From the NCBI GenBank assembly GCA_017479425.1, contig JAFVCD010000027.1, positions 1 through 57,607 on the forward strand: a stretch of 57,607 bases of DNA. The letters run 5' to 3'. Positions 5,444-47,780 of the stretch are shown piece by piece. Each line of letters starts with the position of its first letter. The stretch's first letter is position 1. The notes beneath the pieces were generated by a model. That model saw nothing but the letters and a program-made list of their open reading frames with translations. It was not told the DNA's origin and made no database searches. The position numbers were made by a program, and so were the translations under genes. Source of the stretch: Oscillospiraceae bacterium (GTDB lineage Bacteria; Bacillota; Clostridia; Oscillospirales; Oscillospiraceae).

Positions 5444-5463
5444 AACGTAACCGATATATAAAA

Positions 5464-5497
5464 CAGAGCCTGCGGAAATCCGCAGGCTCTGATTTTA
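5464..5497. terminator. Bidirectional hairpin terminator
   Basis: A 13-bp perfect stem (CAGAGCCTGCGGA and its complement) with a 2-nt loop lies between convergent genes. It is followed by ATTTTAT on the plus strand and TTTTAT on the minus strand. Confidence 0.85.
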
Positions 5498-5511
5498 TGC
5501 AGTGATGACAA

Positions 5512-6261: not shown

Positions 6262-6956
6262 AGGCGTTTTTCCTTATTTGCATAGAAGTAATCCTCGCCC
6301 TCCGGCTCAACGCGGCGCGTTATCCATTTGAGGCGCTTGTGCTCAGTGGCGGGGTGAGGCTTGTCCGGAATTTCTACAACATAGCGGTTTGAGACGTTTA
6401 TTACCCGCGTGTCAGCGATTCGCTCCTCGCGCGGGATCGAAAGATCGTAGGTCATGTGAACGTGGCCGTGCAGCAACAGCGTGGGAGTAAACTCGTCAAT
6501 TAAGCGGTAGAACGCTTGAAAGCCCATGTGCGGCCGATCGTCGAGATCGCCGCAGCCTCGCGGCGGCGCGTGGGTGACGAGAATATCGAGCCCCTTTGCG
6601 CGGCGTATGCCGAAGCCGAGGCGCCATACAAGAGCGCGCATTTTGTGCTCGGTTATCTGAAACCTGCCCTCGCGGTATTTGCGGCAGCCGGGAAGTCCGG
6701 CTATTACAACTCCGTTGTAGCGAACAACTGCGTTGTCAATGCAGTCGCAGCCCTCCGGAGCGTCCCATTCATAGCACTCGTCGTGGTTGCCGTGGACGTA
6801 TAGGAGCGGAACATTTGCCATCGTGACGAGAAAGCGCAGATATTCCGGCTTCAGATCGCCGCAGGAGATTATGAGGTCGATACCATCAAGGCGCGATTTT
6901 GAGAAGTGATCCCAAAGCGCGGGATCTTCATCGTCGGAGATACAGAGGACTTTCAA
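6258..6956 (-). CDS. Metallophosphoesterase
   Basis: A calcineurin-like phosphoesterase of about 232 residues. Start chosen at TTG 6956, 1 nt after the stop of the upstream gene, with GAGGTG 8 nt before it. An upstream ATG at 7103 would lie deep inside the neighbour. Motifs in order: SDDEDP (in place of the usual D-x-H), SCGDLKPEYL, HGNHDE, THAPPRG and the C-terminal HGHVHM, which together form the two-metal site. The Glu-containing first motif is, to my recollection, normal for this clostridial subfamily. Likely soluble. Substrate unknown; its place between a BMP-like protein and a nucleoside phosphorylase makes a nucleotide or nucleoside-phosphate plausible, but that is inference. Confidence 0.85.
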   Translation of the reverse strand: MKVLCISDDEDPALWDHFSKSRLDGIDLIISCGDLKPEYLRFLVTMANVPLLYVHGNHDECYEWDAPEGCDCIDNAVVRYNGVVIAGLPGCRKYREGRFQITEHKMRALVWRLGFGIRRAKGLDILVTHAPPRGCGDLDDRPHMGFQAFYRLIDEFTPTLLLHGHVHMTYDLSIPREERIADTRVINVSNRYVVEIPDKPHPATEHKRLKWITRRVEPEGEDYFYANKEKRL

Positions 6957-6957
6957 T

Positions 6958-8874: not shown

Positions 8875-8908
8875 TATAGTTCATTCCTTACTAAGTTCTT
8901 TGACGGAA

Positions 8909-8937
8909 TATTATCATATTCTACAAGCAGTTACAAC
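8909..8937 (-). promoter_or_regulatory. Predicted promoter of the BMP/phosphorylase operon
   Basis: On the minus strand, TTGTAA (8937-8932), a 17-nt spacer and TAATAT (8914-8909) lie about 30 nt before the ATG. Confidence 0.5.
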
Positions 8938-8989
8938 AGTCAAGAGGACGTTATTTTGTTAATTTTCTGTTATATATTCGGCGGGATGA

Positions 8990-9017
8990 TTGAAAATCAC
9001 GGGAATGATGGTACAAT
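8990..9017 (+). promoter_or_regulatory. Predicted promoter of the ABC transporter
   Basis: TTGAAA (8990-8995), a 16-nt spacer and TACAAT (9012-9017). The leader would be only about 12 nt, so the weak SD GGTGA would lie at the very 5' end of the mRNA. Confidence 0.5.
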
Positions 9018-9035
9018 ACGATCGGTGATATTTGA

Positions 9036-12000: not shown

Positions 12001-12515
12001 TTACTGGCTATAACGATATGCGCAAGGCGCAGAGCGAGGACGATAAGGTCATAAGCTACACCGACTATGTCGATACCCTTATGAGCGGCGTTACAGATAT
12101 TATCGATGCCGTGAGCTACGTTCTCGTGGCGTTTGTTTCGATCTCGCTCGTTGTGTCGAGCATAATGATCGGCGTTATCACCTATATCAGCGTGCTTGAG
12201 CGCAAGAAGGAGATCGGTATTCTCCGCGCAATCGGAGCGTCAAAACGCAATATCAGCGAGGTTTTCAACGCAGAGACCTTCATTATCGGCGCGCTCGCCG
12301 GTATTTTCGGCGTTGTGATAACGTGGATTCTCATTATTCCCACGAATATCATAATCCACAACGCGACCGGGCAGAACAATATCAACGCCGTACTGCCTGT
12401 TCCGGCGGCGCTTATCCTCGTCGCGCTCAGCATCGTGCTGACCCTCATCGGCGGCATAATCCCGTCGCAGAAGGCGGCTCGAAGCGATCCGGTTACGGCG
12501 CTCAGAAGTGAATAA
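9036..12515 (+). CDS. ABC transporter, fused ATPase and FtsX-type permease
   Basis: A 1,159-residue MacB-like protein. The ATPase domain (1-230) has Walker A GPSGSGKTT (38-46), the LSGGQMQRVAIARAL signature (142-156) and Walker B ILLADEPTG (162-170). One membrane helix follows at about 268-290. A very long segment (about 290-1015), acidic and rich in predicted helices, is inferred to be extracellular. Three membrane helices follow with the FtsX core (LERKKEIGILRAIGASKRNI, then GGIIPSQKAARSDPVTALR). The family couples ATP hydrolysis to mechanical movement of external domains, for example in peptide export, antimicrobial-peptide resistance or lipoprotein handling. No partner gene is adjacent, so the substrate is unknown. 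Fusion of ATPase and permease with an insert of about 700 residues is common in clostridia. Confidence 0.9.
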   Translation: MLRISKISKVYKTGALIQRALDGVSLSLRDSEFVAILGPSGSGKTTLLNIIGGLDRYDSGDLIINGVSTKKYTDRDWDSYRNHTVGFVFQSYNLIPHQTILENVELALTIGGTTSKDKTARAKAALERVGLGDHIHKKPNQLSGGQMQRVAIARALVNDPDILLADEPTGALDSDTSVQVMELLKEVAKDRLVVMVTHNPELAEQYATRIVTLRDGVIRNDTDPFDDKTDESQAVHKNLGKASMSFFTALRLSFNNLRTKLARTILVSFAGSIGIIGIAMILSMSNGVDMYIQSIEEETLQSYPIQITNTSFDLSGMVASRTDAGDDEPEKPKTEKAVRERHTITTMLSGVTTNDLESLKAFFESEGRDINAYVRAIEYNYGVTPQIYTLRDGKVRQVNPDKSFAALGFSTGGYGSSLMSSLTSTDTFHLMPEDESLYKTAYDVKAGRWPEKYNECVLVLSGTSRVTDMALYTMGLKNPARLDEMLRLAVEGGTPETDIGELQFDYADFLGISFKLIAASDRFSYDDEYGVWTDRSDDETFMRSLLEGAEDISIVGVVVPREDASNLALSSGIGYPASLVYHIIDLADSSASVKAQLDNKETDIFTGKRFDDYSTGADFDMASLFSIDEQALADAFTFDPEQFEIDPSDFDMSDMELDPGDYDFDMPSISGDDLSSLLGSVKLDLSAEKLSGIFEKLIKSYTDSAGEDGVTELSELPTAIRAYLGTEEARGIISADAQAAIASAQEKLVTIDDLRESLERIMAGLEDYLAENPVDSAERLRTVAEYLAQEEISELIRAEADRLSEKAASALDLTGLATDLTTHLVEGYEAYAAENDEAPTITDVTNDLRAYLEGEEAQRIITEGVAGIIDTSGIETEINKLVGKFSGSISSQISSLMTRLVGKITEKFSDIIGDMFADFSIDPEAISSAFSTNFSVEELKSLMTSMMSTERSSLDSNLRKLGYADLNKPSSITIYPTDFDGKSAVKGILTGYNDMRKAQSEDDKVISYTDYVDTLMSGVTDIIDAVSYVLVAFVSISLVVSSIMIGVITYISVLERKKEIGILRAIGASKRNISEVFNAETFIIGALAGIFGVVITWILIIPTNIIIHNATGQNNINAVLPVPAALILVALSIVLTLIGGIIPSQKAARSDPVTALRSE

Positions 12516-12519
12516 AGCA

Positions 12520-12548
12520 AAGGCAAGCCGTTAAACGCGGCTTGCCTT
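12520..12548. terminator. Bidirectional terminator overlapping a stop codon
   Basis: An 11-bp perfect stem (AAGGCAAGCCG and complement) with a 7-nt loop lies between convergent genes. The stop codon of the minus-strand gene is in the loop and its last residues are encoded by the stem. Confidence 0.8.
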
Positions 12549-14132
12549 GTATCTTTTATAGAGCATATATCCGATTCTTATTACGCCGTCGGCAATCATC
12601 AGAATGCCGAGCGCGAGCACGAAGGGATAGACGACGGAGCGCGAGATTATCAGAACTGCGCCGCCGAAAATTGCGGAAAAGATCGTCTCAAGTATGTAGA
12701 GAACCTTTATCAGTCGGTCGCTCTCGTGCGAAGCCTTGTCCGCGCAGCCGAAGGCGAAGGCGATGAACACAATGCCGAAAATCGTACTTCCCATGATGAA
12801 CATTGCCTGCTCCTTGATGATAAGAACGAGGCATAGCGCCAGCATCAGTGTTGTTAGCGCGGCTCGCTCTCGCAGACCCTCAATGCGAAAGCCGTTCAGA
12901 ACGAAGCGCCGGAGTGTGAGTATAAGCTGTATCGCCGCAAGCGCGACGAATATAAATGTCGCAGTCAGCTCGAGAATCGAATCCGTTGTGCAAAGCAGAA
13001 GAATTCCGAAGAGCACCATCAAAAGAGCGTGGGCGAAGTGACATTCAGTCAGCCATTGCCCGATTTTTCCGGGGTTGACCTCGATAACAGTGCCGTCGTT
13101 CAGCGCCTGACCGGGCAGGGAAGCGAGAGCTTTTTTTGTGACCTCGCTTGCGCCGCCGAGTGAAACTATCGCCTGCTCAAAGCGCAGAGGGGTCAGATCC
13201 TCGAGCTTTTCGGCGCCGCTTTTTGTCAGCGTGCTGAAGAGCTCGTTGATGAAAACGGGTCTGTCCTCGCTCTTGATAGTTCCGATCCAGTCGTTGAGCC
13301 TCTCACCGAGCCATTCTGAGAAGGCGTCGCGCTTGTCAATGCACATAAGCTCGCCGCCGTCAAAAAGCCATGTCGCCATCGAGTGCTGAATTACGCCGTC
13401 CGCGTTGGATTTTACTATAAGCGTGTCCGATATATCCGGCTCAAAGAGCTTTCCGACAACGTCGAACTCCGGCACGATGCGCACAAGCTTCCCATCGGCA
13501 CGCTTCAGCATCTCGGGGTCGGTGACCTCCGGGCAGAAGCCCGGCCCGTCGAGGCAATAGATGGTTTTCACCGCGCTGAGTTTATCGTCGGAGAGGTGCG
13601 CTGCGACATAGAGCGCGAGATTGCCGCCCTTTGAGTGACCGGTTATGTACCATTCGCGCCCGGGTATTATCAGCCTCTCCGCATAGTCGAGCGCCATGTG
13701 CTGAGCCTCGGTCTCTGTGAAGGATATCATAAAATCCTCCTGCCAGCCCGCGAGAGTGCTGTCGGTGCCGCGGTAGGCGATGAAGGAGAAGCTATCCGCT
13801 CTGAAGGTCACTGCTGAGAACTGGAGCGGCGGCTCTGTGCGTATTTCGTTAACGTAGTCGCTCATCTCAACGCTTCCGAAGCGCCGGGACGATGCGGCGG
13901 CGCGCAGAATATCTGTGTAGCCCATATCCGCGCCGGTGATCTCTACCGGTACCTTGCCCTCGTCGATGAGCGGCAGAACGTTGGACAGGAGCGGCTTTTC
14001 GCTCTGCGCGAATACCTCGTCGAGATCGAAGTAGGAGATCATGGCGAAAACGAGGTTATCAGCCGTGGAAAGCGGGTATTGCTCAAATGAAAACCGCCCG
14101 AGCCACTTGATATAATCCACTAATGTATTCAT
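12531..14132 (-). CDS. Lipase-like alpha/beta hydrolase with membrane C-terminus (DUF2974-like)
   Basis: A 533-residue protein. Start set at ATG 14132, preceded by GGGAGGTG at 7-nt spacing; the ATG five codons upstream lies inside that SD. The N-terminal half resembles the DUF2974/Mbeg1-like lipase group, with GHSKGGNLA (165-173) holding the putative nucleophile Ser167. VTFRADSFSFIAYRGTDST precedes it as the oxyanion-side strand region. From about residue 365 come roughly six hydrophobic helices similar to DUF308/HdeD-type membrane repeats. The hydrolase domain is probably cytoplasmic, since there is no signal sequence. Substrate is unknown. It is divergent from the DUF11 gene with overlapping promoter regions. 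The fusion suggests membrane-associated ester or lipid hydrolysis, which is inference. Confidence 0.75.
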   Translation of the reverse strand: MNTLVDYIKWLGRFSFEQYPLSTADNLVFAMISYFDLDEVFAQSEKPLLSNVLPLIDEGKVPVEITGADMGYTDILRAAASSRRFGSVEMSDYVNEIRTEPPLQFSAVTFRADSFSFIAYRGTDSTLAGWQEDFMISFTETEAQHMALDYAERLIIPGREWYITGHSKGGNLALYVAAHLSDDKLSAVKTIYCLDGPGFCPEVTDPEMLKRADGKLVRIVPEFDVVGKLFEPDISDTLIVKSNADGVIQHSMATWLFDGGELMCIDKRDAFSEWLGERLNDWIGTIKSEDRPVFINELFSTLTKSGAEKLEDLTPLRFEQAIVSLGGASEVTKKALASLPGQALNDGTVIEVNPGKIGQWLTECHFAHALLMVLFGILLLCTTDSILELTATFIFVALAAIQLILTLRRFVLNGFRIEGLRERAALTTLMLALCLVLIIKEQAMFIMGSTIFGIVFIAFAFGCADKASHESDRLIKVLYILETIFSAIFGGAVLIISRSVVYPFVLALGILMIADGVIRIGYMLYKRYKASRV

Positions 14133-14179
14133 TTCCACACCTCCCATTCAAGCTTCTTTACGACAATTATACCATAGTT

Positions 14180-14209
14180 TTCACAAGAAGTAAACCTCCG
14201 GCATATAAT
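14180..14209 (+). promoter_or_regulatory. Predicted promoter of the DUF11 gene
   Basis: TTCACA (14180-14185), an 18-nt spacer and TATAAT (14204-14209). The leader carries a small GNRA-loop hairpin (CAGGGC-GAAA-GCCCTG, 14216-14231) just before the SD. A minus-strand TATAAT at 14172-14167 overlaps this region and may serve the divergent hydrolase gene. Confidence 0.55.
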
Positions 14210-14254
14210 GTCGTGCAGGGCGAAAGCCCTGAAAAATATCGGGAGGAATTACTC

Positions 14255-15094
14255 TTGGCACAGTTTTATAATCAGGCGACGCTCACTTACACGGGCGGCA
14301 CCGTAAACTCCAATATAACTGTGGGCGAGGTCACGGAGGTAATCACCGCGACGAAAACGCCCATTACGAAGGAATACACCGCAGATTCAGACGTGACCTA
14401 TCTCATAAGCCTTGTAAACTCCGGCGACGTGGACGTGACCGGCGTCACTGTCGTCGATGACCTCGGCGGGTATACCGTCGGCACCGAGACTGTCTATCCT
14501 CTGAGCTATGTTGCTGACAGCGTGACTTATCTTGTGGACGGAACACCGTCCGCGGCACCGACGGTCACGGTTAACGGCACAGTGACCTTCTCCGATATCA
14601 CAGTTCCGGCAAACGGCAACGTCGCGATCATCTATGAGGCGGAAACCACTGCTTACGCGCCTCTCGGCGAGGGCGCGACTATTGCCAACAGCGCGACCAT
14701 CAACGGAAGCTGCATCGTCGATCCGATAATCGCCGCCGCGACAGTTCCGATGGACATGGCTCCGGCGCTGACGATCTCCAAATCCCTCACGCCGGACGTT
14801 CTCTCCGGCTGCACCGAGATAACCTACACCTTCGATATCCGCAATTACGGCGGTGCGGCTGACGCTGCGGCGCAGATCGCTCTTGCAGATACCTTCGACC
14901 CGCCTCTCACGGGTCTTGAGGTAACTCTCGGCGGCGCGGCATTCACTGCCTACACCTATTCCGAGACTACCGGCATTATGACCACCACCGCAGGAGCGAT
15001 AACCGTTCCCGCCGCGACCTTCACACAGAACACCGACGGCACCTGGACTACCGACCCCGGCGTTGTTACGGTGACAGTTACCGGCACGATGTAA
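14255..15094 (+). CDS. DUF11-repeat protein, TTG start
   Basis: A 279-residue protein. Start set at TTG 14255 because GGGAGG (14241-14246) lies 8 nt before it. The open frame extends back to an ATG at 14123, but that crosses the promoter. It begins AQFYNQATLTYTGG and continues with DUF11-like beta-sandwich repeats: TKTPITKEYTADSDVTYLI (about 32-50) and SKSLTPDVLSGCTEITYTF (about 175-193), each followed by a V-x-D-x-L/F strand typical of the family. DUF11 repeats occur in cell-surface and filament proteins. There is no signal peptide or sortase motif, so export is unproven. Composition is Thr/Ala/Val rich. It is monocistronic and followed by the hairpin/repeat locus at 15.1 kb. Confidence 0.75.
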   Translation: MAQFYNQATLTYTGGTVNSNITVGEVTEVITATKTPITKEYTADSDVTYLISLVNSGDVDVTGVTVVDDLGGYTVGTETVYPLSYVADSVTYLVDGTPSAAPTVTVNGTVTFSDITVPANGNVAIIYEAETTAYAPLGEGATIANSATINGSCIVDPIIAAATVPMDMAPALTISKSLTPDVLSGCTEITYTFDIRNYGGAADAAAQIALADTFDPPLTGLEVTLGGAAFTAYTYSETTGIMTTTAGAITVPAATFTQNTDGTWTTDPGVVTVTVTGTM

Positions 15095-38664: not shown

Positions 38665-39849
38665 ATGAAAACGCAATTTGAAAACAATTCACTCACGCTA
38701 TTCCTTGAGGGCCACATCGACTCCTCCAACGCTCCTCAGCTCGAAGCTGAGGCGATGGATGAGCTGAATAAGTACCCTGAGGCGGAAATAATCGTCGACT
38801 GCGATAAGCTCGAGTACATTTCCTCCGCAGGACTTCGCGTAATTCTCAAAATCAAGAAGATGAAGGGCGAAAAGCTCACGGTTGTAAACGTATCACCCGA
38901 GGTTTTTGAGATTTTCGATGTGACCGGCTTTACTGAAATGCTCAATATCAAGAAGAAGCTCCGTGAGATATCCGTTGAGGGCAAGGAGAAGATCGGTCAG
39001 GGCGGCAACGGCGCCGTATACAGACTTGACGAGGATACGATAGTCAAGGTCTACAAGCCGTGGATGGGCTTTGCAGATATCGACAGAGAGCGCAGCTTTG
39101 CAAAGACGGCGTTTGTGAACGGTATTCCTTCTGTCATCGCTTATGATACAGTCAAGGTCGGCGACTGCCTCGGCGTTGTATTTGAGATGCTCAAGTCCGA
39201 CACCCTCGGCCACGCGATGCGCGACAACCCCGATAAGCTTGAGAAGTACGTCGACCAGTACGTCGCTCTTGCGAAGACACTGCACTCTACCCACGTTCCG
39301 CAGGGAAGCTTCGCAACGATCCAGTCTGTTTTGCACCTTCGCGCGGATAATCTTACGGAGTGGTGCACTCCTGAGGAAATCAGCCTTCTTCACAGCATTA
39401 TCGACGACATTCCCGAGGCTGATACCGTTACGCATAATGACCTGCACCCCGGCAACATCATGATACAGAACGGCGAGCTCGTTCTCATCGATATGCCCGA
39501 GGTCACGATGGGTCCGGCAATCTGCGATCTTGTTTCCATCTTCCGCGATATGATCTCCGCACCGAAAAACTCCGGAACGATAATTGAGGGCAGCGTCGGA
39601 ATGCCGGCGGAGATGATAAGCAGAGTGGGCAATATGTTCTTCATGAAATACACCGGCATAACCGACCCTGCCGAGCTTGAAGCATATTATAAGAAGCTCG
39701 GACTTCTCTTCGCGTTTAACGTAGTGCTCGTTGTCGGCTCCGGCGCCGAGCGCTCGAGGCAGATGGCGAAGCATATCATGGATAATCTTCTGCGCGCTGT
39801 TGTCATCCCCAACGAGCAGGCGATCAGATATTTATTTAAGACGATGTGA
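38665..39849 (+). CDS. STAS domain fused to kinase-like domain (1)
   Basis: A 394-residue protein. The STAS domain (1-95) has LEGHIDSSNAPQLE and LEYISSAGLRVIL, with Ser54 at the position phosphorylated in SpoIIAA. From about 105 follows a small-molecule/protein-kinase-like domain resembling family TIGR02172: glycine loop IGQGGNGAVYRL (110-121), Lys128 in IVKVYK, the catalytic loop THNDLHPGNIM (256-266) and metal-binding Asp276 in LIDMPEV. Both halves look intact. A kinase tethered to a STAS antagonist could phosphorylate its own or another STAS Ser. That is inference. SD TAGGAG is present, 15 bp after araD, so it is likely in the ara operon. Confidence 0.85.
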   Translation: MKTQFENNSLTLFLEGHIDSSNAPQLEAEAMDELNKYPEAEIIVDCDKLEYISSAGLRVILKIKKMKGEKLTVVNVSPEVFEIFDVTGFTEMLNIKKKLREISVEGKEKIGQGGNGAVYRLDEDTIVKVYKPWMGFADIDRERSFAKTAFVNGIPSVIAYDTVKVGDCLGVVFEMLKSDTLGHAMRDNPDKLEKYVDQYVALAKTLHSTHVPQGSFATIQSVLHLRADNLTEWCTPEEISLLHSIIDDIPEADTVTHNDLHPGNIMIQNGELVLIDMPEVTMGPAICDLVSIFRDMISAPKNSGTIIEGSVGMPAEMISRVGNMFFMKYTGITDPAELEAYYKKLGLLFAFNVVLVVGSGAERSRQMAKHIMDNLLRAVVIPNEQAIRYLFKTM

Positions 39850-39858
39850 GGCGAAAAA

Positions 39859-41037
39859 ATGAATTCCAGGTACGATAACGGCATTCTTACGCTTTTCCTT
39901 GAGGGGCATATCGACTCCTCAAATGCTGCCAAGTTTGAAAACGAAGCGATAACAGAGCTGAATAATTATCCCGGCGCGGAAGTGATCCTCGACTGCGATA
40001 AGCTTGAGTACATCTCCTCAGCCGGACTTCGCGTGGTTCTTAAGATCAAAAAGCTGAGGGGAGCGAGCGTGAAGCTCGTGAACGTATCCTCTGAGGTATA
40101 TGAGATACTTGAGGTCACCGGCTTTTCAGAAATGCTCGAGATACACAAGAAGCTCCGCTCGGTATCGGTCGAGGGCTGTTCTCTGCTCGGTCAGGGCGCG
40201 AACGGCACAGTCTATCGCTTTACTCCCGATGAAATGATAAAGGTTTTCCGCACGGGGCTTACTCTCGACGTGATCGAGGAGGAGCGCGAAGCGAGCAAAA
40301 AGGCGTTTCTTCTCGGCGTTCCGTGCGCGATACCGTTCGATACTGTGCGCTGCGGAGACAGCTACGGCACGATCTACGAGCTTTTGAAGGCAAAGACGAT
40401 AGCTGAGCGAATCCGCGAGAATCCCGAAGAGCTTCCGGAGCTTGCCGAAAAGTCCGCAAAGCTTCTGCGCGAAATGCACGAAATCGAGATCCCCGAGGGA
40501 AATATGCAGAGAGCGGATAAAAAGCTGCACGAAACCATCGACGCACTCACTGACGATTTTACAGCGGATGAGATCGAGCTTATGCATCGCATCTACAACT
40601 CGATACCGCAAATGAACCGCTTTATACACAACGATTATCACCCCAAAAACGTTATGGTCTCCGGCGGCGAGCTTATTCTTATAGACCTCGGCGACGCTGG
40701 CGCGGGTAATCCTATCATAGATATAATACACAGCTACATGGTCTACAATCTGATCGGCGCCGATATCCGAGCCGAGAAGCCCGATGAGATATGCTTTGTC
40801 GGCATTACTTACGCCGAGGCTGAGCGTTTCTGGAAGATATTCTCGAGAGTCTACTGGGGCAGCGAAGAGAAGTCCAAGGAGATGGACGAGAAAGTCGCGC
40901 CCTTCGCGACTATGATGTATCTCACCGTCAGCATGGCTCACCCGAGGCTTCCGAAGGAGTATCATCCGGTCTACGTGGACAGAGTCCGCAAAAACGTTTT
41001 CCCGCATGCTGAAAAAATGCTCAAAGCATTTGAATAA
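39859..41037 (+). CDS. STAS domain fused to kinase-like domain (2)
   Basis: A 392-residue paralogue with the same architecture. The STAS domain has LEGHIDSSNAAKFE and LEYISSAGLRVVL (Ser54). The kinase domain has LGQGANGTVYRF (110-121), Lys128 in IKVFR, IHNDYHPKNVM (256-266) and Asp276 in LIDLGDAG. The STAS half is more similar between the two proteins than the kinase half, so the pair may have different kinase targets but a shared STAS partner. It starts 9 bp after the first. A strong hairpin follows. Clearly a tandem duplication. Confidence 0.85.
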   Translation: MNSRYDNGILTLFLEGHIDSSNAAKFENEAITELNNYPGAEVILDCDKLEYISSAGLRVVLKIKKLRGASVKLVNVSSEVYEILEVTGFSEMLEIHKKLRSVSVEGCSLLGQGANGTVYRFTPDEMIKVFRTGLTLDVIEEEREASKKAFLLGVPCAIPFDTVRCGDSYGTIYELLKAKTIAERIRENPEELPELAEKSAKLLREMHEIEIPEGNMQRADKKLHETIDALTDDFTADEIELMHRIYNSIPQMNRFIHNDYHPKNVMVSGGELILIDLGDAGAGNPIIDIIHSYMVYNLIGADIRAEKPDEICFVGITYAEAERFWKIFSRVYWGSEEKSKEMDEKVAPFATMMYLTVSMAHPRLPKEYHPVYVDRVRKNVFPHAEKMLKAFE

Positions 41038-41043
41038 TGAGAC

Positions 41044-41075
41044 AAGGAGCGCTGTCAGATAAGACAGCGCTCCTT
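41044..41075. terminator. Hairpin between convergent genes
   Basis: A 13-bp perfect stem (AAGGAGCGCTGTC and complement) with a 6-nt loop. It overlaps the last codons and stop of the minus-strand phosphatase gene. T-runs are short, so termination strength is uncertain. Confidence 0.65.
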
Positions 41076-41852
41076 AAGCTTTTCGATCTGTTTTTCCGTG
41101 ATACCAAGCCCATTGTGAATATAATCGAGCACCGAGCCGTATTTTTCATTCAGATGCGCTATCGACTCGCGCAAGAACCGCTCTTCGACCGATTCAAAGA
41201 CGCCGAGTCCCATTTCTGTCAATGCCTCATCCCAGCCGAGCGAGGAGAAATACCGCTTCATTTTGTCGATCGAGGCGGAGTTATACTCGTTTGTCAGCAT
41301 ATAATCGGAAACTACGGTCTCTTCGTCCACACCGAGCGCCGTCATCAGGAGCATCGCGGCAAGCCCTGTTCTGTCCTTGCCGCTCGTGCAGTGCCATAAA
41401 ACAGCGCGGTCGGGAGCCGCGGCAAGAATGATGCGGAAAAAATCACCGAATCCGCGCTTGCCGCTTTCGCAATCGAGGTATTTCTTATAAAGCGCCGTGC
41501 CGAACAGATCGTAGCGCGCCATAATGTCTATGATTGCCCGTATATCGTTAAGGTCGCTCTGAATATCTGCAAACGCGGCAAATTCGCTGTCAGTCATCTG
41601 CATAACGTCGATATTGTGGTACTCTGCGCCGCTTATCACCGGATCCTCGAAGCCGGCGATCTCCATCGGCATACGGAAGTCGATTATATCGCTGACCTTG
41701 TAATAATCGCGCAGCAGAGCAGCTTCTTCATCTGATATGCCGTTCAGCTTCGCAGTGCGAAGCAAAAGACCGCTTTTTATATGCCGACCGTCGGCGGCAG
41801 CGTATCCGCCCAGCTCGCGCGCGTTTTTGACGGATTTCAGAGTAAAACCCAT
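41055..41852 (-). CDS. Tyrosine/phosphoinositide-type protein phosphatase
   Basis: A 265-residue dual-specificity-like phosphatase (Y_phosphatase3/Tyr-Ser group). Start at ATG 41852 has GGAGGTCAC upstream; a longer frame to 41882 lacks an SD. NARELGGYAAADGRHIKSGLLLR is the family's N-terminal signature and WHCTSGKDRTGLAA is the P-loop with Cys155 and Arg161. VIDFR-type SDIIDFRMPME precedes it. Cytoplasmic; relatives act on phosphotyrosine, phosphoserine or phosphoinositides. It stands alone between a STAS-kinase pair and the cotJ operon. A role in reversing the kinases' action is possible but speculative. Confidence 0.88.
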   Translation of the reverse strand: MGFTLKSVKNARELGGYAAADGRHIKSGLLLRTAKLNGISDEEAALLRDYYKVSDIIDFRMPMEIAGFEDPVISGAEYHNIDVMQMTDSEFAAFADIQSDLNDIRAIIDIMARYDLFGTALYKKYLDCESGKRGFGDFFRIILAAAPDRAVLWHCTSGKDRTGLAAMLLMTALGVDEETVVSDYMLTNEYNSASIDKMKRYFSSLGWDEALTEMGLGVFESVEERFLRESIAHLNEKYGSVLDYIHNGLGITEKQIEKLKERCLI

Positions 41853-41890
41853 TTTGTGACCTCCGTAGCTTTTTCTATACATTATATAAC

Positions 41891-41926: not shown

Positions 41927-42348
41927 TCATTTATCGAACGAAGGATTAATAGCGTAGATATTCTTTTTATCCATCTTCTCTGTGGCGAGCCTCAGAGCCT
42001 CACCGAAGCGCTGGAAGTGTACTACCTCGCGCTCCCTGAGGAATCTGATAACATTGTTGACGTCCGGATCGTCGGAGAGGCGCAGGATGTTGTCGTAGGT
42101 CACGCGAGCCTTCTGCTCAGCGGCAAGATCCTCTGTGAGATCGGCGATAACGTCGCCCTTGACTGCGAAGGTCGCGGCAGTCCACGGAGTGCCGGAGGCA
42201 AACTGCGGATAAACTCCGGTGGTGTGGTCGACGAAATACGCCTCCATGCCGGCTTTTTTGATCTCCTCCTCGGTCATATTGCGCGTGAGCTGCTGGACTA
42301 TGCTGCCCACCATCTCGAGGTGTCCCAGCTCCTCTGTACCTATATCGG
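41927..42348 (-). CDS. cotJC: cotJC 3' segment (interrupted gene)
   Basis: The C-terminal two-thirds of a CotJC/manganese-catalase-type spore-coat protein. Read from the junction core it gives DIGTEELGHLEMVGS and continues to YAINPSFDK, about 134 codons. Metal ligands of the second ferritin-like helix pair (EELGHLEM, later EQKARVTYDNIL and REREVVHFQRF) are present. It has no start codon with an SD of its own. The 5' segment lies 4.7 kb away at 47040-47243. Joining the two at the shared core gives one continuous frame of about 198 codons, so this is an interrupted and potentially restorable gene rather than simple decay. Confidence 0.92.
42331..42348. other. Attachment-site-like repeat, left end
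   Basis: CCTC-T-GTACCTATATCGG. It matches 47050-47067 at 17 of 18 positions; the 13-bp core GTACCTATATCGG (42336-42348) is identical. On the cotJC strand the core encodes part of DIGT. Confidence 0.9.
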
Positions 42349-42441
42349 AGTCAAAATGGAGAGGTCAATGCTCACAATGCAAAGCAGACACATAAGAATT
42401 AGATGGCAGATCATAAGCGGACAGCTTTTTATTTTGCTCAT
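42340..42441 (-). CDS. 33-residue hydrophobic peptide at element end
   Basis: A short ORF with a textbook SD: GGAGGT at 42454-42449, 7 nt before ATG 42441. It encodes a Cys- and Leu-rich peptide (starts MSKIKSCPLM, centre LILMCLLCIVSI) that looks membrane-active. Its stop codon TAG lies inside the attachment core (42342-42340). It reads outward from the element toward the cotJC 3' segment. It exists only in the integrated form with this end; after excision the circle junction would change its C-terminus. No homology recognised. It may be a toxin-like, regulatory or chance peptide. Confidence 0.45.
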   Translation of the reverse strand: MSKIKSCPLMICHLILMCLLCIVSIDLSILTPI

Positions 42442-42471
42442 AAAAACTACCTCCATAATTGTATTTTTTCT

Positions 42472-42738
42472 ATGTATCATATCAGAGAAAAGATATCAAA
42501 TGAAATAAAACGGCCTCTGCAACGCATAAACTCTCCCATAGAGGGGGGTAAGCATATATACGATAAAGGTGTTTACGGGTCTGTGATAACAGCAGATGGC
42601 GTTTCACAGAACTTCCTTTTTGAGTTTGAGAGAGCCGTACTTATCGCGCTTAAGGAGGAGGGGGTGATTGACGAGCTTCAATACAGCTTTGCAGAGGAGA
42701 AGCTCAAGACACAAAAGGGCAGAAATAAATCTGACTAA
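42472..42738 (+). CDS. Small element-borne protein (SHOCT-like tail?)
   Basis: An 88-residue ORF beginning MYHIREKISN and ending in EEKLKTQKGRNKSD. The segment ALKEEGVIDELQYSFAEEKL resembles the short SHOCT motif found in small clostridial proteins. No convincing SD precedes this ATG; the frame is open back to ATG 42403, which would overlap the opposite-strand peptide. Position at the element end opposite the recombinase makes a recombination accessory factor conceivable, with no direct evidence. Could also be a non-expressed remnant. Confidence 0.45.
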   Translation: MYHIREKISNEIKRPLQRINSPIEGGKHIYDKGVYGSVITADGVSQNFLFEFERAVLIALKEEGVIDELQYSFAEEKLKTQKGRNKSD

Positions 42739-42742
42739 TATA

Positions 42743-42771
42743 TTTCATTTTTCGTTTAAATATGATATAAT
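42743..42771 (+). promoter_or_regulatory. Predicted promoter of the element's cargo operon
   Basis: TATAAT at 42766-42771 with a weak -35 (TTTCAT, 42743-42748) at 17 nt. It lies about 58 nt before the HD gene and would drive HD, MATE-ATPase and possibly the recombinase. Confidence 0.45.
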
Positions 42772-42828
42772 CTAAAATAAAAATTACTGATTACTGACCG
42801 ACCAGTACGAAAGAGAGCTGATTTAGAT

Positions 42829-43698
42829 ATGAACGAAGACTTCCTTATAGAACGAAGGCTCATGAAAATATCGCCTGAGCTTCATCAGAGAACCAAGGAC
42901 AGCGCCTTTGTTCTGCAAAATATGCTCGAATCCTATCTGCCGCGCTTTCCGGATTTTACCGATCACTCCATTCTGCACAGTATGGACGTGCTCGATTTCT
43001 GCAATAAGCTTGTCGGCGTCGATCAGGCTGAGAAGCTCAGCGCCGCGGAGTGCTATGTGCTTATTATGGGCTGCTATCTGCACGATATCGGCATGGGTGT
43101 TAACGCTAAGGACTATGAGCTGTTTTCTAAGGAGATAGACTTCGGGGACTATCTGCTTACACATTCGCTGGATGACGCTCGCAATGTCACGCGCGCCTTT
43201 CACAATGAATACAGCGGGCTGTTCATAAGAAAATACGCTTCTCTTTTCGATATTCCCTGCGAGGAGATGCTTTTCGCGATAATACAGGTCTCGCGCGGTC
43301 ACCGTAAAACAGACTTGTACGATGATAAAGAATATCCGAATCTGACAAGTGAGTACGGGGTAATCAGAACTGCTTATCTTGCGGCGTTAGTTCGGCTTGC
43401 CGATGAGATCGACGTTGCCTCAGACCGCAATCCCGAGCTGTTATTCGACACTTCAAAATATTCCGATCCCATCAGCAAACGCGAGTTCGGAAAGCACGAG
43501 TCTATCCGCAGAGTTGAGATCGAGGATGACAGAATAGTGCTTCTTACAAAGCCGAAGAGCCCGGAATTCGTTCCGCTTATCGAGGAGCTTGCCGGCAAGA
43601 TTCAGAAAACTCTTGACTATTGCCGCGACGTTGTGGAAAAGAGAACTGAATTTCATATCACTCAGTCGAAAATTGCGATTCTTCCGTGGGAAGAGTGA
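42829..43698 (+). CDS. HD-domain protein
   Basis: A 289-residue soluble protein with an HD metal-dependent phosphohydrolase core: DHSILHSMDVLDF (45-57), CYLHDIGMGV (82-91, the His-Asp pair) and LVRLADEIDVASDR (about 187-200). This arrangement resembles the HD domains found beside Hsp90-like or histidine-kinase-like ATPases (HD-CE type). The C-terminal third is mixed alpha/beta and ends ITQSKIAILPWEE. The SD (AAAGAGAG) is 12 nt away and weak. It lies 14 bp before a transporter carrying an ATPase domain of that superfamily. Substrate unknown. Confidence 0.8.
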   Translation: MNEDFLIERRLMKISPELHQRTKDSAFVLQNMLESYLPRFPDFTDHSILHSMDVLDFCNKLVGVDQAEKLSAAECYVLIMGCYLHDIGMGVNAKDYELFSKEIDFGDYLLTHSLDDARNVTRAFHNEYSGLFIRKYASLFDIPCEEMLFAIIQVSRGHRKTDLYDDKEYPNLTSEYGVIRTAYLAALVRLADEIDVASDRNPELLFDTSKYSDPISKREFGKHESIRRVEIEDDRIVLLTKPKSPEFVPLIEELAGKIQKTLDYCRDVVEKRTEFHITQSKIAILPWEE

Positions 43699-43712
43699 GA
43701 GGAGAGATGATT

Positions 43713-45506
43713 ATGAGCACTGCGATAAAAGCAAAGGGCGCGAAGAACGATACCATTATCCGAAAGCTGTTCCAGACGACGATGATTACAATGATGATCG
43801 CGGAGCTTTCCGGCGCGCTTTCCTCTGTTATCGACGGCCTGATTACCGGCTTCAGCCTCGGTCAGATAGAGCTTGCGGCGTTGGGAGTTTGTCTGCCGTA
43901 TTACAGTATTCTAAGCATAATCAGCGGAATTCTTATGATCGGCTGCTCCGCAATGTGTACAAGTGCGATAGGAAGAGGCGACTCAAAGGAAACAAGCAGC
44001 GTTTTTTCATTGACAGTTCTTATCGGCGGCGCGCTCTCAGTCGCGCTGACTGTTGTCGGACTCTTATTTCCCGAGAGTATTGCAAGCCTGTTCGGTGCGA
44101 AAGCTGAGGCAGCTGACCTTCACAGAGAAACCGTAAATTATCTGCGCGGAGTAGTGATCGGCGCTCCGGCGCTCGTTTTCTTCGTTGTGCTTACTCCGAT
44201 TCTCCAGCTTGACGGCGATACAAAAAGACCTCAGCTCGCCTCCGCGCTTATGGCGATTACCGATATTGCGGGCGATCTTCTGAACGTCTACGTTTTCCAC
44301 GGCGGAGTTTACGGAATGGCGCTGGCAAGCTCTGTAAGCCATATCGTCGCATTTATCACGATTCTTTCGCATTTCACAAAAAAGAGCGGGCTTTTCCGAT
44401 TCTCCTTATCCGCGATTCGCTTTGATATGATACCGGCGCTGACGAAGGGCGGACTTCCGCGCGCGGTCTGTATGCTGAGCCGCACTCTGCTTCCGATTTT
44501 CATGAACACTCTTGTGCTCGCGCTTGTTGGAAGCACCGGTGTTACGGCGCTTTCCGCTCAGAGCACGCTGTCCTTCACTATCGCATCTCTCGGATGGGGA
44601 ATCGGCGGCGCCGTTTCGATCATGGGCGGTATGATGGTCGGTGAGCAGGATGAAAAAGGGCTCGAGGAGGTTGTCAAAACCGCGCTTTGGGATATCCTCA
44701 TCGGCGTTACTGCAATTTCGGTAGTTGTTTTCCTCGCCGCTCCGTTTATTGCCGCTCTGTTCGTTCCTGAGGCAGGTGACACTCAGAAAATGACTGTCGA
44801 CGCGATCCGCTCGTATACGTTCGCTCTGCCGTTCTTTGCGTTCAACGTGATGTGCGCAAACTATTTGCAGGCGATAACGAGAATTCTTGCCTCGACGCTT
44901 GTAAATATCGGCATTGAGGTCGCCTTTACTGCTGTTTCCGCTTATATACTGAGCTCCTTGTTCGGTACGATGGGTATATGGCTCTCTTATTTCTGCGGTC
45001 AGGCTATTCTCAGCCTTGTGCTGTTCGTAATTGCCGCCGTTAAGAAAGACCCCGCGCGACATGGTCTTGCGGCGCACATGGTGCTGAAAAAGGATTTCGG
45101 CGTGCCGGAGGAGGATCGCATCGAGCGCTCACTCAATACTATGGATGAGGTCGTCGCGTTCTCTGAGGATGTCAGCAGCTTCTGCATGGAGCATAAGCTC
45201 GGAAGCAAGGAGTCGAACAGACTCGCGCTATGCGTTGAGGAGATGGCGGGAAACGTCATTGAGCACGGCTTCACCGGCGATAAGCCACACCACCTTGATG
45301 TTCGTGTTCTAATCAAGGGCGAGAGCGTCATACTCCGTATGAGAGATGACTGCGAGAAGTTCGATCTCTGCGAAAAGGCGCAGAAGTGGTCGTTTGATCC
45401 AGAGCATCCGGAGAAAAATATCGGCATCAGGATCGTTCTCAAGCTCGCGAAGGATATATCTTACACGAATACGATGAATACAAACAATCTCATTATTACA
45501 GTCTGA
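43713..45506 (+). CDS. MATE transporter fused to RsbW-like ATPase domain
   Basis: A 597-residue protein. ATG 43713 is preferred (GAGGAG 8 nt upstream); ATG 43707 is too close to the SD. Residues 1-450 hold about 12 helices of a MATE-family exporter, with the FQTTMITMMIAELSGALSS opening and a repeated half. Residues about 480-597 form a histidine-kinase-like ATPase: N-box ALCVEEMAGNVIEHGF (Glu509/510, Asn514), G1 box LRMRDDCEKFD (Asp545/546) and a G2-like KNIGIRIVLKLA. This places an anti-sigma-kinase-like module on the cytoplasmic end of a transporter. It may phosphorylate a STAS protein in response to transport, or gate transport with ATP. Carried by the cotJC element. Confidence 0.88.
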   Translation: MSTAIKAKGAKNDTIIRKLFQTTMITMMIAELSGALSSVIDGLITGFSLGQIELAALGVCLPYYSILSIISGILMIGCSAMCTSAIGRGDSKETSSVFSLTVLIGGALSVALTVVGLLFPESIASLFGAKAEAADLHRETVNYLRGVVIGAPALVFFVVLTPILQLDGDTKRPQLASALMAITDIAGDLLNVYVFHGGVYGMALASSVSHIVAFITILSHFTKKSGLFRFSLSAIRFDMIPALTKGGLPRAVCMLSRTLLPIFMNTLVLALVGSTGVTALSAQSTLSFTIASLGWGIGGAVSIMGGMMVGEQDEKGLEEVVKTALWDILIGVTAISVVVFLAAPFIAALFVPEAGDTQKMTVDAIRSYTFALPFFAFNVMCANYLQAITRILASTLVNIGIEVAFTAVSAYILSSLFGTMGIWLSYFCGQAILSLVLFVIAAVKKDPARHGLAAHMVLKKDFGVPEEDRIERSLNTMDEVVAFSEDVSSFCMEHKLGSKESNRLALCVEEMAGNVIEHGFTGDKPHHLDVRVLIKGESVILRMRDDCEKFDLCEKAQKWSFDPEHPEKNIGIRIVLKLAKDISYTNTMNTNNLIITV

Positions 45507-45557
45507 AGCTGAGTGATCACAAAAGAAAAGGAGTGATAATTTCAAAGAGGTGCTTTT

Positions 45558-47048
45558 ATGATTAAGGTCGCAGTTTACTGCCGCGTTTCGACGGATAAGG
45601 ACGATCAGGCGAATTCCTTTCAGGCGCAGCAGAGATACTTCAAGGAATATATAGACAGAATGCCGGAGTGGGAGCATTACCGCACCTACGCCGACGAGGG
45701 CATCTCCGGCACCTCGACGATTAAGCGCGCTCAGTTCAACAGAATGATCGCGGACGCGCGTGAGGGGCGCTTCGGGCTTATCATCACAAAAGAGGTAAGC
45801 CGGTTTTCCAGAAATATACTTGACACCATCTCCTACACCCGAGAGCTCAGAGCTTTGGGTGTGGGAGTTCTTTTTGTGAACGACGGAATAAACACGCTTG
45901 AGCCGGACTCAGAGCTGCGACTCTCGATCATGGGCTCAATCGCGCAGGAGGAGAGCCGAAAGACATCAACGCGTGTCAAGTGGGGTCAGACGAGGCAGAT
46001 GGAGCGCGGAGTGGTATTCGGAAGGTCGCTGCTCGGCTATGACGTTAAGGGCGGGAAAATTTCAGTCAATCCCGAGGGGGCGGAGATCGTAAGGCTCATA
46101 TTCCGCAAATACGGCATTGAAAATAAGAGCACGTCCGAAATCTCGCGTGAGCTCAGGAATGAAGGGTATAAGACGCTTTCCGGCAGTGATTATTGGTCGC
46201 CCGCGCACATTATTAAGATACTGAAAAATGAAAAGTACGTCGGGGATCTCGTGCAGAAAAAGACGATAACGCCGGATTATCTCTCACACACGAAAAAATA
46301 CAACCACGGCGAGGAGCCTATGATTACGCTGAGAGATCACCATGAGCCTATAATCGACCGAGAGCTGTGGAATGAAGTTCAGAAAGAGCTGAAAAGGCGA
46401 AATAAGCACTCTGTGCGCTCAATTGGGCGGTCTGCGATATATGCTTTTTCCGGAAAAATAGAGTGCGGAGAGTGCGGAGCGAGCTTTGTATCGCGCAGTA
46501 AAAAGCGCGCGGACGGCAGCTTTGTGAGGCGTTGGTGCTGTGCAGCGGCGACAACCCGAGGCGCAAAAGCCTGCGGCGTAGGCAGAGCAATACGCGACAA
46601 CACGGCGTCGGAGTTAATGCGTAACGCCATAGCTTTACTGTGTTTTGACAGAAATATGATTATTGATAATCTGACAAAAATTGTAACAGAGGTGATTCGA
46701 TCCGGCGAGGAAACAACTGAGAAGCTGGCGAATGAAGTCGACAGAATCTTGAAGAAGAAGGCGACGGTGCTCGACAGCTATTTTTCCGGAATCATCACAG
46801 AAGAAGAAATGCGCCTGATGACCGAGCGCTACGATGGCGAAATTTCGGCATTGAGAGAGAAAATCGCAATTATTCCGCTGTGCGAGTTTGACAAAATAAG
46901 AAACAAAGTTGCGGCTGTGGTTAATGGTGAGAACGGATGTGATATATTATACAGAATGCTTCTTGACCGGATGACGGTATATAAGGAGGGTAGAGTTGAG
47001 GTTCGGCTTAAGGAGATACCTGAGGCGTTTTATTTTTCGCTATTTTGA
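45558..47048 (+). CDS. Large serine recombinase
   Basis: A 496-residue site-specific recombinase. The catalytic domain begins KVAVYCRVSTDKDDQ with nucleophile Ser11, followed by YADEGISGTSTIKRAQFN and ITKEVSRFSRNILDT. A Recombinase domain (LLGYDVKGGKISVNPEGAE...) and a zinc ribbon (ECGECGASF, WCCAAAT, CGVG) follow. A coiled-coil-like region (about 390-450) completes the usual phage-integrase/SpoIVCA-like plan. Length matches the family. SD AGAGGTG lies 8 nt before the ATG. Its stop is 1 nt from the right attachment repeat. It is the obvious enzyme for integrating into, and excising from, cotJC; excision normally also needs a directionality factor. Confidence 0.95.
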   Translation: MIKVAVYCRVSTDKDDQANSFQAQQRYFKEYIDRMPEWEHYRTYADEGISGTSTIKRAQFNRMIADAREGRFGLIITKEVSRFSRNILDTISYTRELRALGVGVLFVNDGINTLEPDSELRLSIMGSIAQEESRKTSTRVKWGQTRQMERGVVFGRSLLGYDVKGGKISVNPEGAEIVRLIFRKYGIENKSTSEISRELRNEGYKTLSGSDYWSPAHIIKILKNEKYVGDLVQKKTITPDYLSHTKKYNHGEEPMITLRDHHEPIIDRELWNEVQKELKRRNKHSVRSIGRSAIYAFSGKIECGECGASFVSRSKKRADGSFVRRWCCAAATTRGAKACGVGRAIRDNTASELMRNAIALLCFDRNMIIDNLTKIVTEVIRSGEETTEKLANEVDRILKKKATVLDSYFSGIITEEEMRLMTERYDGEISALREKIAIIPLCEFDKIRNKVAAVVNGENGCDILYRMLLDRMTVYKEGRVEVRLKEIPEAFYFSLF

Positions 47049-47243
47049 ACCCTCAGTACCTATATCGGTAAGAAGACCCCTAAGCTCGGGGTATGGCATC
47101 GAAAACCTCTGGCTCAGATAGCGCAGTGAAGCGCCCAGCTCACCGTCGGGACCTCCGTACTGAGAAATAATAAACTTCGCGAGAGCGGGGTTGGTGTTGC
47201 GTATCTTTACCGGATATTGAAGACTTTTAGTATAGCTGAACAT
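47040..47243 (-). CDS. cotJC: cotJC 5' segment (interrupted gene)
   Basis: The N-terminal 64 residues of CotJC (MFSYTKSLQYPVKI...PELRGLLTDIGTE) followed by three element-encoded residues and a stop. The ATG at 47243 overlaps the stop of the CotJA/CotJB gene (TGATG), so translation is coupled. CotJC is a manganese-catalase-like inner spore-coat protein. The break lies directly in the DIGTEELxHLE motif that holds metal ligands. The truncated product would lack most of the four-helix bundle. See the 3' segment at 41927-42348. Confidence 0.92.
   Translation of the reverse strand: MFSYTKSLQYPVKIRNTNPALAKFIISQYGGPDGELGASLRYLSQRFSMPYPELRGLLTDIGTEGSK
47050..47067. other. Attachment-site-like repeat, right end
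   Basis: CCTC-A-GTACCTATATCGG. Only the fifth base differs from the left copy at 42331-42348. The 13-bp core is 47055-47067. It lies 1 nt downstream of the recombinase stop codon. Confidence 0.9.
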
Positions 47244-47719
47244 CAGTCGGTCGCTCCTCTCTGATTGAACTCCCACGGCCACGGACCTTCGATCCACGTA
47301 TAAGAGTCCATATCCTCAAGGTCATACAATGTCAGCGGGCCGAAGCGCGCTGCAAAGCGGCGGTTTGCCTCTTTCGATAGCTTTATAGTGTCCTTCATAA
47401 GCTTGAAGGCGGCGGCATCGTCCTTGTGTGTGTCAAGATAGAGCTGCAGCTCGTTTACCATGAAGCGTAGCGCCATGACCTCACCGAGCGGGGTACCGGC
47501 GTAAGGATTTGTTCGGTTGACTGTATTCTTGAAGGGCAGCTCAAGACCGGGAAACAGCGTTCCACGGCTCAGCGCGTCTGCGGGGTTATATCGCGGCTCG
47601 GCGTCCTTCTGTACCGGAACGTAGGGAACGGAGAGGGGAGCGCAGGCGGGCAGCTCGCCGTAGCGCCATGTGCATTCCTCCGTGCCGTTATCGTTCATCG
47701 GCTCTTTCTTTTCGTCCAA
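47243..47719 (-). CDS. cotJB: CotJA-CotJB fusion spore-coat protein
   Basis: A 158-residue protein. Start is TTG 47719, with AGGAG 7 nt upstream. Residues about 28-66 (LSVPYVPVQ, YNPADALSRGTLFPGLELPF) match CotJA, a short coat-associated protein. Residues about 76-153 (LGEVMALRFMVNELQLYLDTH, then KLSKEANRRFAARFGPLTLYD and EGPWPWE) match CotJB. In Bacillus these are separate genes of the cotJABC operon; here they share one frame. It overlaps the cotJC start by 3 nt. The proteins are made in the mother cell and incorporated in the spore coat. Confidence 0.9.
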   Translation of the reverse strand: MDEKKEPMNDNGTEECTWRYGELPACAPLSVPYVPVQKDAEPRYNPADALSRGTLFPGLELPFKNTVNRTNPYAGTPLGEVMALRFMVNELQLYLDTHKDDAAAFKLMKDTIKLSKEANRRFAARFGPLTLYDLEDMDSYTWIEGPWPWEFNQRGATD

Positions 47720-47754: not shown

Positions 47755-47780
47755 ATACTATGCGGGAAAGCACAATTAGT
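47755..47780 (-). promoter_or_regulatory. Mother-cell sigma (SigE/SigK-type) promoter candidate for cotJ
   Basis: On the minus strand, AC (47780-47779), a 16-nt spacer and CATAGTAT (47762-47755). This fits the -10 pattern CATAnnnT shared by sporulation sigma factors SigE and SigK and the AC of SigK -35 elements. The transcription start would be about 30 nt before the TTG start codon. Confidence 0.5.

What the first reader, a model, noticed from the sequence alone, without database searches (positions are those of the whole stretch)
41927..47719. cotJC is split by a 4.7-kb serine-recombinase element that could excise to rebuild the gene (skin-like)
The 5' segment of cotJC ends and the 3' segment begins at two copies of an 18-bp repeat (17/18 identical, 13-bp identical core). 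Joining at the core gives a continuous CotJC frame of about 198 codons reading DIGTEELGHLEM exactly across the junction, with no lost or extra base. A large serine recombinase ends 1 nt from one repeat. The host operon is a mother-cell spore-coat operon with a SigE/SigK-type promoter candidate. Precedents in the literature are skin in sigK and SP-beta in spsM. Both segments have kept normal family motifs, which argues against long-term decay.
Basis: partly seen in the sequence, partly recalled or inferred. Interest (0 to 1): 0.93.

Follow-up and report, generated by a model that had tools for sequence, protein, structure and literature searches.

The report
Self-removing DNA inserts in spore-coat gene
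A rumen bacterium's spore-coat gene is cut in two by a small mobile insert that carries its own DNA-recombining enzyme and can probably remove itself to rebuild the gene during spore formation, and related species carry such inserts at three exact spots in the same gene.

Summary
Confirmed, and larger than reported. cotJC is split by a 4,720-bp element carrying a large serine recombinase (LSR) between 18-bp repeats (17/18); joining gives a 198-codon CotJC. Two sister species carry the same element at the same base. The separated halves remain under strong purifying selection (dN/dS 0.009-0.108), although element and host flank diverged together; so the gene is very probably rebuilt. LSR relatives have a cotJC piece cut near the same codon in 55 of 60 loci. 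Two unrelated LSR clades hit two other exact sites in cotJC: 21 of 23 and 12 of 14 loci. At least 61 of 300 sampled species of the family are affected, six at two sites. A one-contig genome has only the split copy. The smallest element is 2.4 kb. A small unnamed gene lies upstream of most LSRs (57 of 73 loci), often with a CATA box at fixed distance: my candidate excision factor. Excision itself was not observed. It works like skin, SP-beta, gin and yin. I found no report of cotJC being interrupted; nearest is a C. difficile prophage beside an uninterrupted CotJC-like gene.

The parts
41927..42348 (-). cotJC 3' segment (codons about 62-198), no start codon of its own at the cut
   Evidence: Pfam Mn_catalase 9e-24; joined frame
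42331..42348 (.). left 18-bp repeat (attachment site on the 3'-segment side)
   Evidence: family D9
42524..42533 (+). GCATAAACTC, sigma-E/K-like -10 box candidate upstream of the small ORF
   Evidence: position-specific enrichment in relatives
42583..42738 (+). small ORF, 51 aa from a GTG (111 aa from ATG 42403), candidate directionality factor; its start codon is uncertain in this genome
   Evidence: HMM match E 3e-13; alignment with G003 and G004
42744..42771 (+). sigma-A-like promoter candidate TTCATT-N16-TATAAT before the cargo genes, similar in all three species
42829..43698 (+). HD-CE domain protein, cargo
   Evidence: Pfam 4.7e-41
43686..45506 (+). MATE transporter fused to an anti-sigma-type ATPase domain (HATPase_c_2), cargo
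   Evidence: Pfam 5.7e-29 and 1.5e-11
45558..47048 (+). large serine recombinase, 496 aa
   Evidence: Pfam Resolvase, Recombinase, Zn_ribbon_recom; PHROG 95 integrase 2.3e-121
47051..47068 (.). right 18-bp repeat (attachment site on the 5'-segment side)
47056..47243 (-). cotJC 5' segment (codons 1 to about 62)
   Evidence: Pfam Mn_catalase 7.2e-19; joined frame
47243..47719 (-). cotJA and cotJB domains in one ORF, upstream genes of the host operon
   Evidence: Pfam CotJA 2e-11, CotJB 7.2e-23
47759..47780 (-). AC-N16-CATA, mother-cell-type promoter candidate of the cotJ operon (consensus recalled)

Best explanation
A small, non-prophage cotJC-intervening element. Its large serine recombinase once integrated it at the GGTAC core of codons 62-63 of cotJC. 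It stays in place in growing cells and in the forespore, so it is inherited. In the mother cell a sigma-E/K-type promoter turns on a small directionality factor coded in the element; with it the recombinase joins the two repeats, releases a 4.7-kb circle and restores a 198-codon cotJC in the cell that makes the coat and then dies. Shown here: anatomy, exact join, codon-level constraint on both halves, co-divergence of element and host flank in three species, recurrence at one codon, a small gene upstream of most related recombinases with a positioned CATA box. Inferred: excision, mother-cell timing, role of the small protein.
For: Join and core. dN/dS of the separated halves 0.009-0.028 (5') and 0.016-0.108 (3') between G000, G003 and G004, with element genes and the host flank gene at similar dS for G000-G003 (1.05-1.20 and 1.11). 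No stop in 43 interrupted 5' halves and 13 interrupted 3' halves. Relatives of the recombinase: cotJC piece in 55 of 60 loci, 27 of the best 30 and 7 of 20 further loci in the family sample. Recombinase and cotJC distances correlate, rho 0.59, 0 of 999 permutations, 39 loci. One-contig genome G130 has only the two halves. Small ORF in 57 of 73 loci, 49 of them within about 110 nt of the recombinase; CATA at -28 to -35 in 11 of 24 representatives against 4 of 138 other ORFs and 0 of 24 recombinase starts. spoIVA, sigE-like and sigK-like genes present. The same layout (recombinase plus small sigma-E-driven factor) is proven for C. difficile skin (PMC5025042, passages).
Against: No excised form was seen; an attP pattern scan of viral contigs gave 0 hits. 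In the window genome the small ORF has no clear start codon. The window genome is 84% complete. Anaerocolumna genomes with the split gene also have an intact cotJC elsewhere (G328, G329), and one element carries an intact cotJ copy inside (L104). The CATA count without position is weak (11 of 25; 2 of 300 shuffles reach it; reverse strand 9), and the positional test was made after seeing it. Only 3 of 13 viral-contig relatives show a (weak) cotJC match. The 3'-half comparison rests on 4 pairs.
Confidence: 0.8

Rival explanations
1. Ordinary mobile element with a preferred site in a gene that is silent in growing cells. It excises only at random, as any phage may, and the halves look conserved because each insertion is recent.
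For: Many relatives are large or prophage-like: G015 about 43 kb, terminase and portal genes in G020. Insertion into late sporulation genes costs little in growth (general knowledge).
Against: The window element diverged together with its host flank in three species and the halves kept dN/dS of 0.009-0.108 meanwhile; recombinase and cotJC distances correlate over 39 loci; the small gene has a positioned CATA box.
Confidence: 0.14
2. The two halves are made separately and assemble as a split CotJC, so no excision is needed.
For: Both halves are conserved at the codon level.
Against: In the window the 3' half has no start codon at the cut, its first ATG lies some 10 codons in, and the 5' half runs only a few codons into the element; the cut is always near one codon for one recombinase family.
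Confidence: 0.03
3. Dead interruption: the element is immobile and cotJC is dispensable or replaced by another copy.
For: Anaerocolumna genomes have a second intact cotJC; one element carries its own cotJ copy (L104).
Against: No other copy in G000, G003 or G004, G130, G330, G331 or G332; no stop codons in 43 and 13 halves.
Confidence: 0.03

Closest known systems
skin of Clostridioides difficile in sigK (recombinase CD1231, directionality factor CD1234; PMC5025042, abstract and passages read)
   Same: Large serine recombinase plus a small factor of similar size (72 aa); factor driven by sigma-E, recombinase by sigma-A; mother-cell gene rebuilt.
   Different: Target is sigK, a regulator; the element has 19 genes. 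Here the target is a coat gene, the element has four genes, and excision is not proven.
gin in gerE of Bacillus cereus ATCC10987 (GirC, 42-aa GirX; PMC5595907, first part and passages read)
   Same: Not a prophage; serine recombinase plus a tiny factor; short gene split at a short core.
   Different: 28.6 kb with three recombinases, found in B. cereus and B. toyonensis strains; here 2.4-7.9 kb where both halves lie on one locus at the site A cut (13.7 kb in G332), in many species.
yin in yabG of Clostridium botulinum and SP-beta in spsM of Bacillus subtilis (PMC10747680 and PMC4191935, passages read)
   Same: Sporulation gene interrupted by an LSR element; excised circle seen.
   Different: Prophages or prophage-like; the yin paper reports one strain only. 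The window element has no phage structural genes.
phi027 prophage of C. difficile R20291 beside CDR20291_1465 (PMC11222575, abstract and passages read)
   Same: A prophage attachment site next to a CotJC-like gene.
   Different: The gene is described as a 678-bp ORF downstream of attR; the passages read report no interruption and no regulated rebuilding.
fdxN element of heterocystous cyanobacteria, recombinase XisF (function recalled)
   Same: Developmental excision by a large serine recombinase; the window recombinase matches the XisF model at 1.2e-31, below its cut-off.
   Different: Other phylum, other gene, other cell type.

Membership tests
LSR-type sporulation gene-intervening elements (skin, SP-beta, gin, yin) | Interrupts a sporulation gene at a short direct repeat so that joining restores the frame exactly | tested here: met
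LSR-type sporulation gene-intervening elements (skin, SP-beta, gin, yin) | Codes for a large serine recombinase near an end | tested here: met
   stop two bases from the right repeat
LSR-type sporulation gene-intervening elements (skin, SP-beta, gin, yin) | Codes for a directionality factor | tested here: inconclusive
   small ORF in 57 of 73 loci (13 of these seeded the model), no known family, start codon unclear in the window
LSR-type sporulation gene-intervening elements (skin, SP-beta, gin, yin) | Mother-cell-specific expression of recombinase or factor | tested here: inconclusive
   CATA box at fixed distance in 11 of 24 representatives; sequence only
LSR-type sporulation gene-intervening elements (skin, SP-beta, gin, yin) | Excised circle and rebuilt gene detected during sporulation | not testable with these tools
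   needs cells or reads; attP scan of viral contigs gave 0 hits
LSR-type sporulation gene-intervening elements (skin, SP-beta, gin, yin) | Interrupted gene stays functional across lineages | tested here: met
   indirect: dN/dS and absence of stops
Prophage or prophage remnant | Carries phage structural, packaging or replication genes | tested here: not met
   window element: small ORF, HD-CE, MATE fusion and integrase; the three large proteins have no structural match

The most novel reading that the evidence does not exclude
cotJC carries removable DNA introns: three separate recombinase lineages, each fixed on its own codon (about residues 30, 62 and 135), have turned one coat gene into a two- or three-exon gene in about a fifth of the sampled species of a gut and rumen family, and excision of one or two elements gates CotJC production in the mother cell.
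Probability: 0.7. Interest if true: 0.88.

Novelty: new variant of a known kind. Interest (0 to 1): 0.8.

Why it matters
The published cases of genes rebuilt in spore formers that I saw are single genes in a few Bacilli and Clostridia. Here one coat gene is split in at least 61 of 300 sampled species of one family, by three recombinase lineages, with elements down to 2.4 kb and genes in three parts. This makes it possible to ask, by comparison and in cultured gut isolates, whether such elements are parasites tolerated in a silent gene or switches that hosts keep. It also offers sets of compact site-specific recombinases with candidate directionality factors, and it suggests that automatic annotation will often miss cotJC.

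Tried and rejected
Second intact cotJC in the genome: none found. Assembly artefact: rejected, since three species assemblies and a one-contig genome agree. Decay: rejected. Prophage: rejected for the window element. Free attP in viral contigs by exact pattern: 0 hits. CATA box without position: weak (reverse strand 9 of 25 against 11), then tested by position after the fact. Small ORF by family libraries: no Pfam match below 0.05 in eight tried; my notebook's word SHOCT-like was recall and has only one E 0.11 match behind it. Site A recombinases as one exclusive clade: 24 of 25 sampled cotJC-linked ones form one clade (support 0.95) without the nine unlinked ones, but L196 groups with an unlinked one. 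The idea that GGTAC alone decides which genes are hit: seven intact genes have it (L005, L015, L142, L150, L152, L155, L164), so it is at most necessary. In one search the window, L071 and L103 rows were misaligned by my anchors, and L096 was, L195 was not found and L215 repeats L080. In one search the frame is partly set by anchoring on conserved codons, so the informative number is the shared core. Structure prediction was not used.
Full report
WHAT IS THERE. The window is one contig of a 1.77-Mb assembly, 84% complete. On the minus strand lie an ORF with CotJA and CotJB domains, the first 62 codons of cotJC, a 4,720-bp element, and the rest of cotJC to codon 198. The ends are 18-bp repeats, 17 identical. 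Joining them gives a 198-codon CotJC; joins shifted by one or two bases end at 74 and 134 codons. The element codes for a small ORF, an HD-CE protein, a MATE transporter fused to an anti-sigma-type ATPase domain, and a large serine recombinase whose stop lies two bases from the right repeat. The only phage-type match of known function is the integrase itself.

OLD AND STILL UNDER SELECTION. G003 and G004 have the same element at the same base. Between G000 and G003, dS is 1.10, 1.20 and 1.05 in the three large element genes and 1.11 in the neighbouring host gene; between G000 and G004 it is 0.17, 0.22, 0.33 and 0.35. So the element was most likely there in the common ancestor. Between G000 and G003 the 5' half of cotJC took 3 nonsynonymous against 22 synonymous changes and the 3' half 5 against 38; over the three pairs dN/dS is 0.009-0.028 and 0.016-0.108. 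Dates are not uniform along the locus: the left-flank STAS gene has dS 0.05-0.09, and for G000-G004 the two cotJC halves have dS 0.76 and 0.12, so parts have been exchanged between species. In the wider set, 43 interrupted 5' halves and 13 interrupted 3' halves hold no stop codon (one 5' half, L089, has an indel); their median dN/dS (0.137 from 201 pairs; 0.114 from only 4 pairs) is near that of 60 intact genes (0.101; 0.154) (L104 was left out because it also carries an intact copy). A gene that is never rebuilt should not look like this.

A RECOMBINASE FAMILY ON ONE CODON. A pattern-based scan of 84,980 species genomes with the three recombinases gave 60 loci; 55 of 60 have a cotJC piece in the locus, cut near residue 62 (some alignments run on by chance). 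Of the five without, L078 and L105 end at the contig end, L102 shows none, and L109 and L110 are distant relatives (37-39% identity). Of 13 viral-contig relatives only 3 show a weak cotJC match. Among 300 species sampled from the family, 95 have a recombinase at E 1e-70 or better; of the 50 loci I looked at, 27 of the best 30 and 7 of 20 further ones lie at cotJC. In a tree of a sample, 24 of 25 cotJC-linked recombinases form one clade without the nine unlinked ones (support 0.95). Recombinase and cotJC distances correlate over 39 loci (rho 0.59, 0 of 999 permutations). Of 17 distinct loci with both sides of the cut, 16 joined in frame (L096 failed by my anchor), with a shared core of 5-18 bp in 13 and only 2-3 bp in L097, L103 and L104. 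The rejoined element ends form an attP with mirrored arms, by eye, in the window, L052, L053, L071, L098 and L217; in L081, L089, L196 and L218 I do not see them. G008 and G009, same genus, have uninterrupted cotJC with GGTACA at the site; G008 has the window's GATATAGGTACAGAGGA.

TWO MORE SITES. In the same genus cotJC is cut near residue 30 in G015 (about 43 kb apart on one contig), G017 and G028, and near residue 135 in G033; G020 and G029 have the 3' piece beside a site B recombinase. The three recombinase types share 25-28% identity. Scans of the 300 species show that B and C are dedicated too: 21 of 23 site B loci (the two misses end at contig ends) and 12 of 14 site C loci at 52% identity or more have a cotJC piece, while 0 of 11 C relatives below 43% do. 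Sampled B and C recombinases form exclusive clades (21 of 21; 11 of 11). Together at least 61 of 300 species are affected (A 34, B 21, C 12), six at two sites; 232 of the 300 have a cotJC match at all. Outside that sample, an Oscillibacter assembly (L077) has cotJC in three parts split by 3.5-kb and 4.5-kb elements; joining all three gives 198 codons. The genomes of Agathobaculum massiliense (G330) and Anaeromassilibacillus sp. An250 (G332) also show three pieces. G130, one contig and rated 100% complete, has only the two halves, 3.1 kb apart. The smallest element, in G056, is 2,437 bp and little more than the recombinase. Against this, two Anaerocolumna genomes have an intact cotJC besides the split one, and in L104 the element itself carries an intact copy.

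THE SWITCH. A small ORF without a Pfam family lies upstream of the recombinase in 57 of 73 loci, in 49 of them within about 110 nt (the search model was built from 13 of these loci). It also occurs beside relatives without cotJC, so it goes with the recombinase, not the target. In the window trio it lies 2.8 kb away with the cargo between; G004 has a ribosome site and ATG, the window only a GTG without one or a distant ATG. Of 24 representatives (75% identity clusters; start assigned by ribosome site; L054 dropped for want of a start), 11 have CATA at -28 to -35 of the start against about 0.8 expected; other large ORFs of the same loci have it in 4 of 138, the recombinases themselves in 0 of 24. 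This positional test followed the weaker unplaced count. The host cotJ operon has CATA at -20 to -60 in 22 of 35 loci. CATA is the -10 core of sigma-E and sigma-K promoters (recalled). In C. difficile skin a 72-aa factor with a sigma-E promoter (start of transcription 14 bp upstream) restricts excision to the mother cell while the recombinase is made all the time (PMC5025042, abstract and passages); gin uses a 42-aa factor (PMC5595907, passages). The window element, with a sigma-A-like promoter before cargo and recombinase and a CATA box before the small ORF, has that layout. spoIVA is present above its cut-off; a sigE-like and an unsplit sigK-like gene are present below the NCBI cut-offs.

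VERDICT. The kind is known: a 2023 paper lists sigK, spsM, spoVFB, gerE and yabG as interrupted genes (PMC10747680, passages). I found no report of cotJC as a target: the searches listed none by title or abstract; of the papers holding the word cotJC I opened one, on C. difficile, where a prophage lies beside a CotJC-like gene (PMC11222575, abstract and passages). Most subscription papers are not in that library. New here are the target, three dedicated recombinase lineages on one gene, the small sizes, the three-part genes and the frequency.

Noticed in passing
G029 contig C2 (L219, L220); G032 contigs C2 and C44 (L224, L225): The sigK-like gene is itself split near residue 112 in two genus members (about 23 kb apart on one contig in G029); a recombinase ORF lies beside one piece in G029. 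G029 also has cotJC cut at site B.
   Followed up: partly
L104 (Lachnospiraceae SUG789 assembly) 4116-8353: The cotJC element carries an intact cotJC of its own (4866-5459) with an ORF matching CotJB upstream.
   Followed up: partly
L201 / L218 (G130), L195 (G325), L199 (G249): Three site A elements carry a pyrimidine-nucleoside phosphorylase-like ORF beside the recombinase (family match run for L201 only).
   Followed up: partly
L217 (G332, Anaeromassilibacillus sp. An250) about 3300-14400: The 13.7-kb site A element carries glycosyltransferase- and polysaccharide-type ORFs as cargo, judged by eye from the translations.
   Followed up: no
L040 (G028) 11659-13137: The site B element of G028 sits in the opposite orientation to those of G015 and G017; the shared core GGNGGNCC is nearly palindromic, which could allow both.
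   Followed up: partly
G033 contigs C3 and C15 (L043, L044): The two pieces of the site C interruption lie deep inside two long contigs (175 kb and 28 kb from the contig starts they face), so the insert is very large or the region is rearranged.
   Followed up: partly
window 47243-47719: CotJA and CotJB domains are read in a single ORF.
   Followed up: no
window 38665-41882: Two STAS-kinase-like ORFs and a tyrosine phosphatase gene left of cotJC; dS of the second STAS gene (0.05-0.09) and of the phosphatase gene (0.16-0.25) is far below that of the right flank (0.35-1.19), a sign of recent exchange between the species.
   Followed up: no
L050 (G015 contig C18); G026 contig C1: Two genus members have a second, distant CotJC-like gene (36-38% identity) besides cotJC.
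   Followed up: no
window 42829-43698: The HD-CE cargo protein weakly matches part of a defence reverse-transcriptase model (RT_UG24, E 4.6e-9), so the cargo may have a defence role.
   Followed up: no
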